This document shows, in pieces, positions 3,074-16,156 of a DNA stretch of 17,103 bases; position 1 is the stretch's first letter; the number at the start of each line of letters is the position of its first letter. This stretch comes from Solirubrobacterales bacterium (GTDB taxonomy: Bacteria > Actinomycetota > Thermoleophilia > Solirubrobacterales > Solirubrobacteraceae). Below the pieces are notes generated by a model. That model was not told the DNA's origin, made no database searches, and worked only from the letters and a program-made list of their open reading frames with translations. A program made the translations under genes and the position numbers. Location of the stretch: contig PMKB01000254.1 of assembly GCA_003157595.1 (NCBI GenBank), positions 1 to 17,103 on the forward strand, given 5' to 3'.

Positions 3074-3297
3074 GGCATCGTCACAGGGATTTCGCTGACC
3101 GCGCGACTGCAGCAGACGCTGCGGAGAACCGGATGCGCAGAAGTTCTCTCGCCACCGCGAGCACCGCGGGTAATGTGCGCCGCTGAGTGGATCCGCTCCG
3201 CTGCGGACTCGGCGCTGCGTCGTCACCTTGGATGACATGCCGGGTTCGCGGGTGCTCCGGGTCAGCTGCGTCGCTGATTACTACGAAGGGACTCATC

Positions 3298-5325
3298 GTG
3301 ACCCGAATCTGCTCGGTCCTGATAGGCATGTTGGCCCTTGGCGCTCTGGCGACCTCGGCGACGACCGCGCAGGCGGCGGGATGCTCGGATACCTGGATCG
3401 GGCCAGGTGGGAACACGTCGGCTCCGACCAGCGGCAGTTGGGGAGTTCCAGCCAACTGGTCGACCGGCGCTATCCCGGGGAACACGGACAACGTCTGCGT
3501 CACCGGCACCGGCACCTACACGGTGACGGTGGCGCCCTGGTCCCTGGGGACCGCTGACCCCAACAACAACGGCGCCAACGTGAACTCGCTCACGCTTGGT
3601 GGATCGAGTGGCGCCCAGACGCTCTACGTCGATGGCGAGGCCAGCATCTCCAACAGCAACGAGACCGTGAACAACACCTTCCTGTCCATGGCCGCTGCCA
3701 GCACGGTCAACACGACGGGCACGCTGGAGCTCGATTCGACCGCCGGCGGAAACCCCACGTCGGGCACGCCGGCGTCGCAGAGCGGCGGCGGAGCGACGGT
3801 CAGCGGCGGACCCTTGCTCAACTACGGCCACATCGTGACGCAGCAGGAGGATCCGAGTACGAACCCGGGTGCCGGCACGTTCTTCGGGCTCTACGGCTTC
3901 ACGAACGAGGCTGGCGCAAGCGTGCAGATCAACACCGGAACCCTGACCGAGAGTCAGGCGAACACGTGGACGGCGACCAACGACGGCACGATCACGGTCG
4001 CTTCGGGAGCCTCGTGGGTGCTGACTCCCAACACCTTCAGCACGGCGTCCTTCAACAACGACGGGTCGGTCGTCAACGACGGATCGATCACCGATAGCGG
4101 CGCGACGTGGGCGCAGAGCGGCGGCTCGGTGTCGGGTGGCGCGGTGGTTCTCCAGAACGCCGCGACGCTGGCGGACTCGGCCGGAACGGCATCTTTCCTA
4201 CAGAACTACGGCACCGTCACGATCACCGGGACGATCCCGGCCGGGCAGACCGTCACCGTGCAGGGAGAGCCCTACAACTCGGGCGGGGAGACCTACTACA
4301 GCATCACCACATCGCTCGACGGCGCCCAACTCGTCAACGACGGCACACTCGTGCTCGACGCCGACGGAACCGGCAACACGAGCGGCGGCGCGGTCTACGT
4401 CACCGACGGCTCGATTCAGAACAACGGCGCGATCAACGCCGAGGTAGTGGACCCCTCGTGGGCGGTGCATCTCCAGGCGGGTCTCGCCAACACCCACGCG
4501 GGCACGATGACCGTCACCGGCGGCTCGCTCGACCAGGACAGTGGAACGGCGACCACCAACGACGGTGTCGTGACGCTCGGGCCTGGAGCCGTGTACCTGC
4601 TGGACGAGGCCGCCTCCTTCGTCAACGCCAGCGACGGCACGGTCTCGCCCCAGCTTGCGGGTGCCACGAGCATCGGCACGTTCCAGCTGAGCGGCCCGTG
4701 TTGCAACGGACCCGGCACATTCACCGCCGGTGGCACCCTGCTGGCGGATCTCACCGGCGGCTTCCTGCCGATCGCCAATCAGGAATTCCAGCTCTTTGCG
4801 CTCACGGGAGGAAAGTTCACGGGCACCTTCGCCACGGTTGGCAACAGCTTCACGGCCGACTACACGAAGGAAGCCGCGAGTCCAGCGTTCGTCGGAGCGA
4901 TCTACCAGTCGACCCCGCCGGCGCCGCCTCCCGTGCACGTCGGCTCGATCTTGGGCGGCCACGGCAAGCTCACGCTGGCGCTCTCATGTCCGGCAGGCGG
5001 GGCCGCGTGCGCGACCTTGAGCGTGACGGCCAGGGTCACCGAGCACCTCAGGGGCGGAAAGATCACCGCGATCACCGCACGCAAGAAGAAGAAAGCTCAC
5101 ACGCAGACGAAGCAGGTTGTGATCGCGACCGCCGGCGCCTCGCTGGCCGCGGGCGCCACCAAGACGCTCACGCTGACGCTCAACGCGGCCGGGAAGGCAC
5201 TGCTCAAGAAATACGGCAAGCTCACGACGATCGTGACCGCCAGTTCGGGCGGCAAGACGCTCGAGACAGCCACCGTCCGCGTGCAGAAGCCCGCGAAGCC
5301 AAAGAAGAAGAAGAAGAAGAAGTAG
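3298..5325 (+). CDS. Secreted beta-rich surface protein with poly-lysine C-terminus
   Basis: The start is GTG 3298, preceded by GAAGGGA at 7-nt spacing; the product is 675 residues. A Sec signal peptide covers about residues 1-26 (MTRIC, a hydrophobic core, then ATSATTAQAAG). The mature protein begins CSDTWIGPGGNTS with SWGVPANWSTGAIPG and TGTYTVTV, as in extracellular beta-helix proteins. It continues for about 500 residues of Gly/Thr/Asn/Ser-rich repeats of the type NDGTITVASGA, NDGSITDSGA, NDGTLVLDADG, which suggests a right-handed beta-helix. The last ~115 residues form a separate beta-domain (LALSCPAGGAACATLSV...LNAAGKALLKKYGKLTTIVT), a type I associate with Thermoleophilia surface proteins. 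The protein ends in PAKP plus seven lysines encoded by AAG repeats. There is no sortase motif or terminal membrane segment; the basic tail may bind acidic wall polymers. Adhesin or matrix protein is an inference. Confidence 0.8.
   Translation: MTRICSVLIGMLALGALATSATTAQAAGCSDTWIGPGGNTSAPTSGSWGVPANWSTGAIPGNTDNVCVTGTGTYTVTVAPWSLGTADPNNNGANVNSLTLGGSSGAQTLYVDGEASISNSNETVNNTFLSMAAASTVNTTGTLELDSTAGGNPTSGTPASQSGGGATVSGGPLLNYGHIVTQQEDPSTNPGAGTFFGLYGFTNEAGASVQINTGTLTESQANTWTATNDGTITVASGASWVLTPNTFSTASFNNDGSVVNDGSITDSGATWAQSGGSVSGGAVVLQNAATLADSAGTASFLQNYGTVTITGTIPAGQTVTVQGEPYNSGGETYYSITTSLDGAQLVNDGTLVLDADGTGNTSGGAVYVTDGSIQNNGAINAEVVDPSWAVHLQAGLANTHAGTMTVTGGSLDQDSGTATTNDGVVTLGPGAVYLLDEAASFVNASDGTVSPQLAGATSIGTFQLSGPCCNGPGTFTAGGTLLADLTGGFLPIANQEFQLFALTGGKFTGTFATVGNSFTADYTKEAASPAFVGAIYQSTPPAPPPVHVGSILGGHGKLTLALSCPAGGAACATLSVTARVTEHLRGGKITAITARKKKKAHTQTKQVVIATAGASLAAGATKTLTLTLNAAGKALLKKYGKLTTIVTASSGGKTLETATVRVQKPAKPKKKKKKK
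5302..5322 (+). repeat. (AAG)7 microsatellite encoding the C-terminal lysines
   Basis: Seven perfect tandem AAG codons directly precede the TAG stop at 5323. A perfect trinucleotide run can change length by slippage without breaking the frame, so the number of terminal lysines could vary between strains. Confidence 0.85.
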
Positions 5326-13567: not shown

Positions 13568-14572
13568 TTAGGCTTCGCGGAGCGCGCGCAGCGACTGGCG
13601 CAACGAACGGCTCGTGGCGATCACGGCCGAGGGCTCGTAACCGCAGTGCGCCATGCAGTTGTTGCAGCGCTCGTCCTTGCCGCGACCGTAGAGCTCCCAG
13701 TCGGTCTCCTCGACGAGCTCGCGGTAGGTCTTCACGTAGCCGTCGCTCATCAGATAGCAGGGTCGCTGCCAGCCGAGCAGCGAGTAGCTCGGGATCGCCC
13801 AGGCGGTGCAGTCGAAGTCGGCCTTGCCCTCGAGGAAGTCCAGGAACAGCGGGCTGTGGTTGAGCCTCCAGCGCCGTCGGCGCCCGTCGGAGAAGGCCTC
13901 GCGGAAAAGCTTGCGCGTCTGCTCGACGCCGAGGAAGTGGTCCTGGTCGGGCGCCTTCTCGTAGGCGTAGGCGGGGGAGATCATCATCGCGTCGACCTTT
14001 AGCTCGTCATTGAGGAAGTCGAGCACGCGGCGAACCGTGTCGGGCGAGTCGTTGGTGAAGAAGGTCGTGTTCGTCGTGACGCGGAAGCCCCGGCGTTTGG
14101 CCTCGGCGATCGCCTCCACCGCCTTGTCGAACACGCCGTCGCGGCAGACCGACTCGTCGTGACGTTCGCGCAGGCCGTCGAGGTGAACCGCCCAGGCGAA
14201 GTACTGGGATGGCTTGAAGAGGTCCATCTTCTTTTCCATCAGCAGCGCGTTGGTGCACAGGAACACGTACTTGCGCCGCCGGATCAGCTCGGAGGCGATC
14301 ACGTGGATGTCGGGGTGGATCAGCGGCTCGCCGCCCGCGATCGAGACCATCGGGGCGCCGCTCTCCTCGATCGCCGCGATCGCATCCTCGACCGGCATGC
14401 GACGGCGCAGGAGCTCGTCGGGCTGCTGGATCTTGCCGCAGCCGGCGCACGCCAGGTTGCACTGATAGAGCGGCTCAAGCTCCACCAGCAGCGGGAAGCG
14501 CCGTCGCCGCGCCAGGCGCTGACGCATGATGTAGGCGCCGATCCGAAGGCTCTGGCGCGCGGGAACGGGCAC
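13568..14572 (-). CDS. hpnH: Adenosyl-hopene transferase HpnH (radical SAM)
   Basis: The 334-residue protein (GTG 14572) matches HpnH. In hopanoid producers HpnH adds a 5'-deoxyadenosyl radical to the C30 hopene (diploptene) to form adenosylhopane, the first step of the C35 side chain. The radical SAM cluster motif CNLACAGC uses Cys38, Cys42 and Cys45; IAGGEPLIHPD (78-88) is the SAM-contacting GGE motif. PLLVELEPLYQCNLACAGCG and the C-terminal RCNNCMAHCGYEPSAV are typical of the family, as is MMISPAYAYEKAPDQDHFLG. The gene begins 3 nt after the HpnG-IspH stop and is therefore translationally linked to it; it is the last gene of the operon. An Arg-rich N-terminal helix may contact the membrane. 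Confidence 0.95.
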   Translation of the reverse strand: MPVPARQSLRIGAYIMRQRLARRRRFPLLVELEPLYQCNLACAGCGKIQQPDELLRRRMPVEDAIAAIEESGAPMVSIAGGEPLIHPDIHVIASELIRRRKYVFLCTNALLMEKKMDLFKPSQYFAWAVHLDGLRERHDESVCRDGVFDKAVEAIAEAKRRGFRVTTNTTFFTNDSPDTVRRVLDFLNDELKVDAMMISPAYAYEKAPDQDHFLGVEQTRKLFREAFSDGRRRRWRLNHSPLFLDFLEGKADFDCTAWAIPSYSLLGWQRPCYLMSDGYVKTYRELVEETDWELYGRGKDERCNNCMAHCGYEPSAVIATSRSLRQSLRALREA

Positions 14573-14575
14573 AGC

Positions 14576-16156
14576 TCAGATTCCCCGATCCCCAGCCGGA
14601 GCGGCCGGCTGCGCACGGACCTGCGGCGGCAGGTTGAAGCGGGTCTCCTCGGTCGCGACGGTGAGCTCGCGCAGCGTCAGGGCGCCGAGGCCACCGAGCG
14701 CGCTGACGACCTCCTGCACGAGCGACTCCGGGGCCGAGGCTCCGGCGGTCACGCCGAGCCGCGTGATTCCGACGAGCAGTTCGGGCGCGATGTCCTGCGC
14801 GCGCTCGACGAGCGAAGCGCGGCAGCCGGAGCGCTCCGCCACCTCGACGAGGCGCCGCGAGTTCGACGAGTTATGCGATCCGACCACGAGGATCAGCTCG
14901 CAGTCGCGCGCGATCGCACGCACCGCGTCCTGGCGGTTCTGGGTCGCGTAGCAGATGTCCTCGGAAGCGGGGACGACCAGCGCGGGGAAGCGTTCCCGCA
15001 GTGCGTCGACGATCGAAGCGGTCTCATCCACGGCGAGTGTTGTCTGGGTGAGCACCGCAACACGGTCGGAGTCTTGCAGGTCCAGGGCGCGGGCCTCGTC
15101 GATGCTCGCGATGACCCGCGTGTGGCCCGGGGCCTCGCCGACCGTGCCCTCGACCTCCTCGTGGTCCTCGTGGCCCACGAGCACGATCTTGTAGTCCCCG
15201 GCTGCGAAGCGTCGCGCTTCGGCGTGAACCTTGGCGACCAGCGGGCAGGTCGCGTCGATCACGTCGAGTTGGCGTTCGACCGCGTGCCGGCGCACCGCCG
15301 GCGAGACGCCGTGGGCCGAGAAGATCACGGTCGCGCCGGGCGGCACCTCGTCGACGTCGTCGACGAATACGGCGCCGCGGCGTTCGAGCTCCCCGACGAC
15401 GTGGGCGTTGTGGACGATCTGCTTGCGCACGTACACCGGCGCGCCGCGCTGCGCGAGCGCCCGCTCGACGATCTCGACCGCCCGCGTCACACCGGCGCAC
15501 GAGGCCCGCGGCGCCGCGAGCACGACCTCGCGCTCGCCCAGCGCCTGCGCCCAGGTCTCAAGCAGCGAACTCGCCTCGCGCAGCGCGCGAAAGGCCCGAC
15601 GCGCGGCAACCGCCGTCCGCGCGGGATGGCGGAACTCGTAGCGCGGCGTGTCCAGCACGACTCGCAGCGTCATCAGCGGTTGCGCGCCGGCATGGTGGTC
15701 GGCGAGCCAGGCGGACTCCATGTCCACCGCCAGCGCGCCGGCCAGCGCGAGCTCGCGCCGGCGCTCGCCGAACACCAGCCCGCTGCTCGAGACGATCGGT
15801 CCGATGTGCACGCGCAGCCCGCCCCGGCGCAGGACGCCGGCGAGGATCGTGGGATCGGGGCAGGGCAGCGTCTTTGAGTCCGTGCGCAACTCGCTGGGGA
15901 GCACGACGTCGCCGGGCTGCAGCTGCGAGTCGAGCGCTCCGCAGACGCCGGCGATCAGTGCCGAACGCTGCTCTGGCTGATGCGTCAGGCGTGCGGCGGC
16001 GCGAGCGCGGCGGGGACCCATGCCGATCTTCTCGACGCGACTCCACGGAGCCCCTGCGCGAATCGCGCGGGCCTCGAGCGCCATCGGCGCGAGGACCAAC
16101 AGGTCGGTGTTCTGGCGTTCGGCGCCGTGAACGCTGGGGTGCGAGCGCCGCTTCAT
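14576..16156 (-). CDS. hpnG-ispH: Fused HpnG nucleosidase - IspH (HMBPP reductase)
   Basis: ATG 16156 overlaps the cyclase TGA as ATGA, and the 526-residue frame holds two complete enzymes. Residues 1 to about 205 are HpnG-like phosphorylase-family nucleosidase (LLVLAPMALEARAI, KIGMGPRRA, LIAGVCGALDSQLQPGDVVL, AVDMESAWLA with Glu147), which removes adenine from adenosylhopane. Residues 209-510 are IspH, the iron-sulfur enzyme that reduces HMBPP to IPP and DMAPP. Its cluster cysteines are Cys220, Cys304 and Cys402. Substrate residues include His249 (IVHNAHVV), His282 (SAHGVS), His329/Glu334 (GHEDHEEVEGTVGE), Thr372, Ser427/Asn429 and Ser474 (GVTAGAS). The join is short (LETWAQALGERE) and no frame break is seen. 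Both halves look catalytically complete. A pyrimidine- or purine-nucleosidase role for the N-half is possible but unlikely given the operon. Confidence 0.93.
   Translation of the reverse strand: MKRRSHPSVHGAERQNTDLLVLAPMALEARAIRAGAPWSRVEKIGMGPRRARAAARLTHQPEQRSALIAGVCGALDSQLQPGDVVLPSELRTDSKTLPCPDPTILAGVLRRGGLRVHIGPIVSSSGLVFGERRRELALAGALAVDMESAWLADHHAGAQPLMTLRVVLDTPRYEFRHPARTAVAARRAFRALREASSLLETWAQALGEREVVLAAPRASCAGVTRAVEIVERALAQRGAPVYVRKQIVHNAHVVGELERRGAVFVDDVDEVPPGATVIFSAHGVSPAVRRHAVERQLDVIDATCPLVAKVHAEARRFAAGDYKIVLVGHEDHEEVEGTVGEAPGHTRVIASIDEARALDLQDSDRVAVLTQTTLAVDETASIVDALRERFPALVVPASEDICYATQNRQDAVRAIARDCELILVVGSHNSSNSRRLVEVAERSGCRASLVERAQDIAPELLVGITRLGVTAGASAPESLVQEVVSALGGLGALTLRELTVATEETRFNLPPQVRAQPAAPAGDRGI

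What the first reader, a model, noticed from the sequence alone, without database searches (positions are those of the whole stretch)
14576..16156. One polypeptide joins HpnG (hopanoid side-chain maturation) to IspH (isoprenoid precursor synthesis)
A single uninterrupted 526-codon frame encodes an HpnG-like nucleosidase and a complete IspH, with all three cluster cysteines and the main substrate residues visible. IspH genes are known beside hopanoid genes, but fusion to HpnG is unusual to my knowledge. The two halves catalyse non-consecutive steps: IspH acts far upstream of squalene, HpnG after cyclisation. The fusion may fix stoichiometry or bring precursor synthesis to the cyclase at the membrane. 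If the genome has no other ispH, the essential precursor pathway depends on this fusion.
Basis: partly seen in the sequence, partly recalled or inferred. Interest (0 to 1): 0.75.

Follow-up and report, generated by a model that had tools for sequence, protein, structure and literature searches.

The report
Hopanoid HpnG-like enzyme fused to IspH
In many soil actinobacteria the enzyme that trims a membrane-lipid side chain is joined in one protein to a spare copy of the last enzyme that makes the lipid's building blocks; the join is real, but the spare copy is an extra and several relatives appear to have thrown it away.

Summary
On the minus strand, 16156..14576 is one 526-codon frame: an HpnG-like nucleosidase (residues 1-205) followed by a complete IspH, between squalene-hopene cyclase and HpnH. 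It is no artefact: 120 of 120 listed relatives of the first half (568 found) carry both domains. It is not rare: near full-length fusions occur in 29 of 399 sampled genomes of the class, window included, and in other Actinomycetota such as Amycolatopsis, Pseudonocardia and Actinopolymorpha. The domain pair was printed in 2015 for Frankia (PMC4746011), unlinked to hopanoids. Fused IspHs fall in one clade apart from housekeeping copies, keep the catalytic residues checked and sit in an shc-hpn operon. Best reading: a second IspH dedicated to hopanoids, joined to HpnG for co-expression, with two independent activities. The halves decay apart: 28 of 129 proteins of one survey lack the IspH core, and one lineage lost HpnG residues but kept IspH. 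No activity was measured.

The parts
14576..16156 (-). whole fusion gene, 526 codons plus stop
   Evidence: Pfam and NCBIfam
15542..16156 (-). HpnG-like half (residues 1-205); E28, E147 and D169 taken as its catalytic set (set recalled from MTA/SAH nucleosidase; E147 and D169 align, E28 lies outside that alignment)
15533..15562 (-). junction, residues 199-208; modelled with high confidence, no long loose linker
   Evidence: predicted structure
14579..15541 (-). IspH half (residues 206-526); cluster cysteines C220, C304, C402
16153..17025 (-). squalene-hopene cyclase, C-terminal part, cut by the contig end; its stop overlaps the fusion's ATG by 4 bases
13568..14572 (-). HpnH, adenosyl-hopene transferase (528.1 bits, cut-off 225.05), 3 bases after the fusion's stop

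Best explanation
The protein is bifunctional. Its N-terminal half removes adenine from the adenosylhopane made by HpnH, giving ribosylhopane. Its C-terminal half is a second HMBPP reductase (IspH) that makes IPP and DMAPP. The IspH half is an accessory copy tied to the hopanoid operon: when shc and hpnH are expressed, extra capacity at the last MEP step comes with them, so that squalene supply can rise without the housekeeping ispH. The join works mainly as co-expression in one translation unit; the two active sites act independently, with no channelling. Shown: the domains, the conserved residues, the operon place, the second ispH, one IspH clade. Inferred: both activities, the supply role and the absence of channelling.
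For: Second stand-alone ispH in the genome, in 25 of 28 other genomes of the class with a near full-length fusion (about 2.8 absences are expected from the stated completeness, own arithmetic) and in 9 of 9 named genomes, one of which, Conexibacter sp. S30A1, is also among the 28. 48 of 48 fused IspHs in the tree lie in one clade (SH-aLRT 99) with 4 stand-alone IspHs, apart from housekeeping copies; fused rows alone as one clade are not rejected. 17 of 18 active-site columns have the same majority residue in fused, housekeeping and neighbouring unfused IspH. In Conexibacter sp. S30A1 one run of genes holds shc, hpnC, hpnD, hpnE, the fusion and hpnH. In family f7 a separate hpnG stands before ispH in 37 loci, 27 of them within 25 bases. 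For 2 of the 4 stand-alone IspHs of the clade the neighbours were typed: both lie next to a dxs, one also next to a polyprenyl synthetase. The halves decay apart. Model: mean pLDDT 89.5; target-normalised TM 0.96 to IspH and about 0.66 to MTA/SAH nucleosidase.
Against: No activity, expression or flux was measured. If more IspH were simply useful, loss of its core in many proteins shows that the benefit is small or conditional. A confident junction and long conservation leave room for a physical role. TIGR03468 cut-off not met. 3 of 28 fusion genomes show no other ispH, though all three are drafts of about 290-300 contigs. Two columns, A375 and A471, differ between fused and housekeeping IspH and stand close in sequence to active-site residues.
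Confidence: 0.68

Rival explanations
1. Physical coupling: HpnG, which works on a membrane lipid, holds IspH near the membrane so that IPP and DMAPP are made close to the squalene and hopene enzymes, or fixes a 1:1 ratio that matters.
For: Confidently modelled short junction; conserved order shc, fusion, hpnH; a similar localisation idea is proposed for IspH-UbiA in PMC4746011.
Against: HpnG without IspH is common: 48 of 120 HpnH loci of the class (a few are cut by contig ends, and L035 belongs to a genome with a fusion elsewhere). IspH core absent in 28 of 129 rows of another survey. HpnG residues lost in one lineage beside a second HpnG.
Confidence: 0.14
2. The IspH half is mainly structural or a redox sensor for HpnG, with little reductase activity.
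For: In 28 of 129 rows the core with the cysteines is gone but most of the C-terminal third stays; one such short form is predicted to fold well, pLDDT 91.2.
Against: The 11 IspH residues checked are all present in the window protein and in nearly all fused rows. In the short forms the C-terminal third evolves faster (mean identity 0.485 against 0.637 at HpnG identity 0.55-0.65). In Phytohabitans flavus against P. suffuscus its dN/dS is about 1.1 (0.27/0.24) against 0.43 for HpnG; against P. maris the two short forms give about 0.54 and 0.75, HpnG 0.46 and 0.54 (three pairs, one genus). It may persist only because in-frame deletions keep the spacing to hpnH (inference).
Confidence: 0.07
3. Two proteins are made, by an internal start near residue 205 or by cleavage.
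For: In-frame GTG at codon 212 of the window gene; 28 of 59 distinct junctions have an ATG, GTG or TTG in the 13 codons scanned.
Against: Of those 59 junctions, 5 have an ATG and 2 a start with a ribosome-site-like stretch; codon 212 of the window lies just outside the scan. No protein data.
Confidence: 0.06
4. The fused IspH-like half has moved to the unassigned reduction of ribosylhopane to bacteriohopanetetrol.
For: It is fused to the enzyme expected to make ribosylhopane; PMC12583986 states that the enzyme for the step to bacteriohopanetetrol has not been established (passage). Columns A375 and A471 differ from housekeeping IspH.
Against: 17 of 18 active-site columns share the majority residue with housekeeping IspH; the half is absent in many clusters that keep HpnG and HpnH; the chemistry differs from HMBPP reduction (recalled).
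Confidence: 0.03
5. Assembly or frameshift artefact.
For: The genome is a draft (358 contigs, 73% complete).
Against: Same join in 120 of 120 listed relatives and on the record titled complete genome of Conexibacter sp. S30A1.
Confidence: 0.01

Closest known systems
UDP/PNP phosphorylase-IspH of Frankia sp. QA3, EUN1f, EAN1pec (Rao et al. 2015, PMC4746011; sections 16 and 22 read)
   Same: Same two Pfam-level domains in one protein
   [quoted passage not shown] not named HpnG; the word hopanoid does not occur in the held text. No Frankia sequence was compared here.
IspH-RPS1 and IspH-UbiA fusions (PMC4746011)
   Same: IspH as one half of a fusion; in the RPS1 case IspH stays active when the partner repeats are removed (passages)
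   Different: Partners are S1 repeats or a prenyltransferase, the latter at the C-terminus of IspH; reported from anaerobes
IspDF
   Same: Fusion of isoprenoid enzymes for non-consecutive steps, described as common (PMC13001223, passage)
   Different: Both halves belong to the MEP pathway
Stand-alone HpnG of hopanoid clusters
   Same: Similar sequence and place before hpnH in many clusters
   Different: No IspH half; the curated HpnG model scores the fused half below its cut-off

Membership tests
IspH (HMBPP reductase) | curated model score | tested here: met
   TIGR00216 310.5 against 187.85; PF02401 307.3 against 24.5; NF002190 395.6 against 389. Narrower equivalogs are missed: NF002189 434.3 against 444, NF002188 401 against 420, NF002187 233.1 against 276.
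IspH (HMBPP reductase) | three cluster cysteines and substrate residues | tested here: met
   C220, C304, C402, H249, H282, H332, E334, T372, S430, N432, S474 present; roles recalled from E. coli IspH, mapping
IspH (HMBPP reductase) | fold | tested here: met
   Foldseek target-normalised TM 0.96 to IspH:HMBPP structures, on a predicted model
IspH (HMBPP reductase) | HMBPP reductase activity | not testable with these tools
   needs purified protein
HpnG | curated model TIGR03468 cut-off | tested here: not met
   74.9 against 187.1; 75.2 for Conexibacter sp. S30A1
HpnG | nucleosidase/phosphorylase fold and catalytic residues | tested here: met
   MTA/SAH nucleosidases; E28, E147, D169 present; that these are the catalytic set is recalled
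HpnG | gene beside shc and hpnH | tested here: met
HpnG | adenine removal from adenosylhopane | not testable with these tools
   needs assay
Frankia UDP/PNP-IspH fusion | same domain order and common descent | not tested
   no Frankia sequence was fetched

The most novel reading that the evidence does not exclude
The fused IspH-like half, sitting on the enzyme expected to make ribosylhopane, catalyses the unassigned reduction of ribosylhopane to bacteriohopanetetrol, in addition to or instead of HMBPP reduction.
Probability: 0.03. Interest if true: 0.9.

Novelty: new member of a known kind. Interest (0 to 1): 0.42.

Why it matters
It turns a domain pair that was set aside in 2015 as possibly random into a conserved feature of many actinobacterial hopanoid clusters, with a testable reading: hopanoid producers carry their own dedicated last step of isoprenoid supply. 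It offers natural experiments (full fusion, IspH core deleted, HpnG residues lost) for asking when a second IspH pays. It also warns that source names mostly call these proteins plain IspH, which hides the HpnG half.

Tried and rejected
Triple fusion: P0099 (821 aa, with HpnH domains) looks frameshifted by eye in several stretches and was not used. Fusion in G555: the 39-524 match proved to be IspH only. Two independent recruitments of IspH (fused, and f7 neighbours): not claimed, since one clade for both is not rejected (p 0.274). HpnG tree: poorly resolved, fused and stand-alone interleaved, 12 changes of label, 3 forced by starred branches; it cannot tell loss of IspH from repeated fusion. 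Selection on the IspH remnant: a predicted fold for it, faster evolution and a dN/dS near 1 in one of three Phytohabitans pairs against it; left open. Rows dropped: 195 IspH domains were thinned at 88% identity within each label to 131; with all 131 the clade held 49 fused and 6 others; L162_H, L166_H, L085_F and L172_H were then left out as long rows. L047_F1 had been mislabelled fused and was relabelled stand-alone. HpnG rows: 195 thinned to 125. By a slip, alignment A3 for the model holds only the IspH half of L084. Papers: no paper naming the HpnG-IspH fusion, or tying it to hopanoids, was seen in searches (listings, and passages of those opened); PMC4746011 came up in 86 and 95.

Full report
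Observation. The window is contig C50 of a draft genome (358 contigs, 73% complete). Its minus strand holds a 526-codon frame at 16156..14576. Residues 211-487 match PF02401 (307.3 bits) and 44-170 match PF01048 (47.5 bits). NCBIfam gives IspH (TIGR00216) above its cut-off and HpnG (TIGR03468) at 74.9 bits, under its cut-off of 187.1. Upstream is squalene-hopene cyclase, cut by the contig end, whose stop overlaps the fusion's ATG by 4 bases; 3 bases downstream starts HpnH (528.1 bits).

Is it real? With residues 1-205 as query, 568 relatives were found; of the 120 listed, 120 carry both Pfam domains. The HpnG half of the Amycolatopsis rubida protein found 677, of which 114 of the 120 listed carry both. 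Of 59 distinct junctions, 28 have an ATG, GTG or TTG in the 13 codons scanned, 5 an ATG, and 2 a start with a ribosome-site-like stretch: no conserved internal start. An AlphaFold2 model has mean pLDDT 89.5 and pTM 0.86; Foldseek pairs its parts with IspH (target-normalised TM 0.96) and MTA/SAH nucleosidases (about 0.66).

The second ispH. The genome holds another, stand-alone ispH at C83:5682-6512. In the IspH tree it groups with the housekeeping copies of G142 and G121, same genus. I searched 38 genomes of the class for PF02401. Of the 28 among them with a near full-length fusion, 25 have two or more matches and 3 (G194, G185, G331) one; from their stated completeness about 2.8 absences are expected (own arithmetic). 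Nine named genomes all have a separate full ispH; in 7 the fused one is full too, in the two Phytohabitans species below it is a remnant. So the essential pathway is not shown to depend on the fusion.

Distribution. In the class, 29 of 399 genomes, the window's included, have a match from residue 18 or earlier to 507 or later. HpnH passes its cut-off in 119 of 399. Those 119 genomes have 120 HpnH loci, window included; I fetched the others and sorted all 120: 29 fused, 37 with hpnG and ispH as separate neighbours, 48 with HpnG only, 5 with neither, 1 with IspH only. Five of the last six stop at a contig end near HpnH. A scan of named genomes with the HpnG half kept 80 of 117 loci: 48 fused, 32 HpnG only; several are the same contigs as above. 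Fused there: Conexibacter sp. S30A1, six Amycolatopsis species, Pseudonocardia, Nonomuraea cavernae, two Actinopolymorpha, three Phytohabitans (two as remnants), three Acidimicrobiaceae drafts and others. HpnG only: Myxococcota, Chloroflexi, many Acidimicrobiia, some Solirubrobacterales and others. In 200 genomes of the family of Pseudonocardia alaniniphila, 29 have a match over nearly the whole length, 2 of these with stops inside (frames not checked one by one). In 396 genomes of the phylum sample, 5 do, the window's included, and the other 4 proved fused. Outside Actinomycetota no fused locus was seen, but one database cluster, P0086, is named after an Acidobacteriota draft on a 7-kb contig, which may be a misplaced contig. 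The scan patterns came from the window's own order, so absence elsewhere is not shown.

Operon. In Conexibacter sp. S30A1 (L028; same contig as L223) the genes shc, hpnC, hpnD, hpnE, fusion, hpnH follow one another (HpnD scores 271.5, just under its cut-off of 278.6), with 4-base overlaps at shc/hpnC, hpnD/hpnE and hpnE/fusion. In the 37 unfused neighbour loci, all of family f7, hpnG precedes ispH; 27 of 37 gaps between the matched domains are 25 bases or less, the rest up to 229; where shc is on the contig the order is shc, hpnH, hpnG, ispH.

Descent. IspH domains (195, thinned to 131, then 4 long rows left out) give a tree in which 48 of 48 fused rows and 4 stand-alone rows form one clade (SH-aLRT 99), apart from housekeeping copies; the 18 neighbouring unfused rows form another (99). 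With all 131 rows the clade holds 49 fused and 6 others. Fused rows alone as one clade are not rejected (p 0.567, likelihood 5.18 higher), nor is fused plus neighbouring (p 0.274). Of the 4 stand-alone members, the neighbours of 2 were typed: both lie next to a dxs, one also next to a polyprenyl synthetase. One origin of the fused IspH is the simplest reading; the HpnG tree is too weak to confirm it.

Catalytic residues. Over 83 rows (75 different sequences; the window protein stands twice), each of the 11 IspH residues is kept in 80 or 81 rows; the exceptions are Phytohabitans flavus and P. suffuscus, whose IspH core is deleted, the cut contig L260 and the broken frame L275. Between 49 fused, 60 housekeeping and 18 neighbouring IspHs, 17 of 18 active-site columns share the majority residue; the eighteenth varies in all (the list of columns is recalled). 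Two other columns, A375 and A471, are Ala in most fused but Ser in most housekeeping IspHs and stand close in sequence to active-site residues; what they do is unknown. In the HpnG half, E28, E147 and D169 are kept in 79, 79 and 75 of 83 rows; D169 is Glu in five. In L033 all three are changed, and in L073 and L290 (one contig, fetched twice) D169 is changed and the other two lie off the contig; in both genomes a second, stand-alone HpnG lies in the same cluster.

Decay. In the Amycolatopsis-type survey, 28 of 129 rows (26 of the 120 listed proteins plus two Phytohabitans) lack most of the IspH core but keep most of its C-terminal third; most also keep its first strand. On a tree of the HpnG half the state needs at least 22 changes, 8 forced by well-supported branches. 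That tree is weakly resolved, the label is almost as scattered as in shuffles (mean about 25.6), and counts cannot tell gain from loss, so 'many times' is likely, not proven. Some short forms may be cut database proteins, but P. flavus and P. suffuscus are strains with chromosome records. The remnant evolves faster than the same part of full proteins (0.485 against 0.637 at HpnG identity 0.55-0.65). Between P. flavus and P. suffuscus its dN/dS is about 1.1 against 0.43 for HpnG; against P. maris the two give about 0.54 and 0.75, against 0.46 and 0.54 for HpnG. Yet one short form, P0152, is predicted to fold well (pLDDT 91.2). So the IspH half is dispensable in many lineages; whether its remnant does anything is open.

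Mechanism. From papers: HpnH adds the deoxyadenosyl radical to diploptene; HpnG, called a putative phosphorylase, removes adenine to give ribosylhopane; the enzyme that makes bacteriohopanetetrol from it has not been established (PMC12583986, passages). The two active sites lie far apart in the pathway and act on unrelated substrates, so channelling is unlikely (inference). The best reading is a hopanoid-dedicated second IspH joined to HpnG for co-expression. A precedent for fusion across non-consecutive steps is IspDF (PMC13001223, passage).

Prior art. Rao et al. 2015 (PMC4746011; sections 16 and 22 read, other passages by search) list a UDP/PNP phosphorylase-IspH fusion in Frankia sp. [quoted passage not shown] PMC5462960 (passages) says that in most SD1 Acidobacteria hpnH, shc and ispH form a cluster, although another passage of it names ispA there. 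No paper that names the fusion as HpnG-IspH or ties it to hopanoids was seen.

Verdict. Real, conserved, and already glimpsed in print; the added part is its identity, context, breadth, single IspH clade and one-sided decay. Interest 0.42.

Noticed in passing
L257, L287 (Phytohabitans flavus, P. suffuscus) and 26 of the 120 proteins listed: HpnG fused to an IspH that has lost most of its core but keeps most of the C-terminal third; the deletion ends differ between proteins.
   Followed up: partly
L033; L073 and L290 (one contig): HpnG half of the fusion has changed catalytic-type residues while a second, stand-alone HpnG stands before hpnH in the same cluster.
   Followed up: partly
L075, L077, L078, L081, L239: The Asp that matches D169 of the window protein is Glu in these fused proteins.
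   Followed up: no
window protein residues 375 and 471: Ala in most fused IspHs, Ser in most housekeeping IspHs; the only two columns that passed the filter for a consistent difference.
   Followed up: no
L298, L305: Stand-alone IspHs whose rows fall in the fused clade lie next to a dxs gene, one also next to a polyprenyl synthetase.
   Followed up: partly
L040-L044 and others of family f7: hpnG and ispH as separate, often nearly touching genes after hpnH: a possible picture of the state before a fusion, or a parallel recruitment.
   Followed up: partly
window 3187-5325, + strand: 712-aa frame with a Ser/Thr/Gly-rich body and a lysine-rich end; not examined.
   Followed up: no
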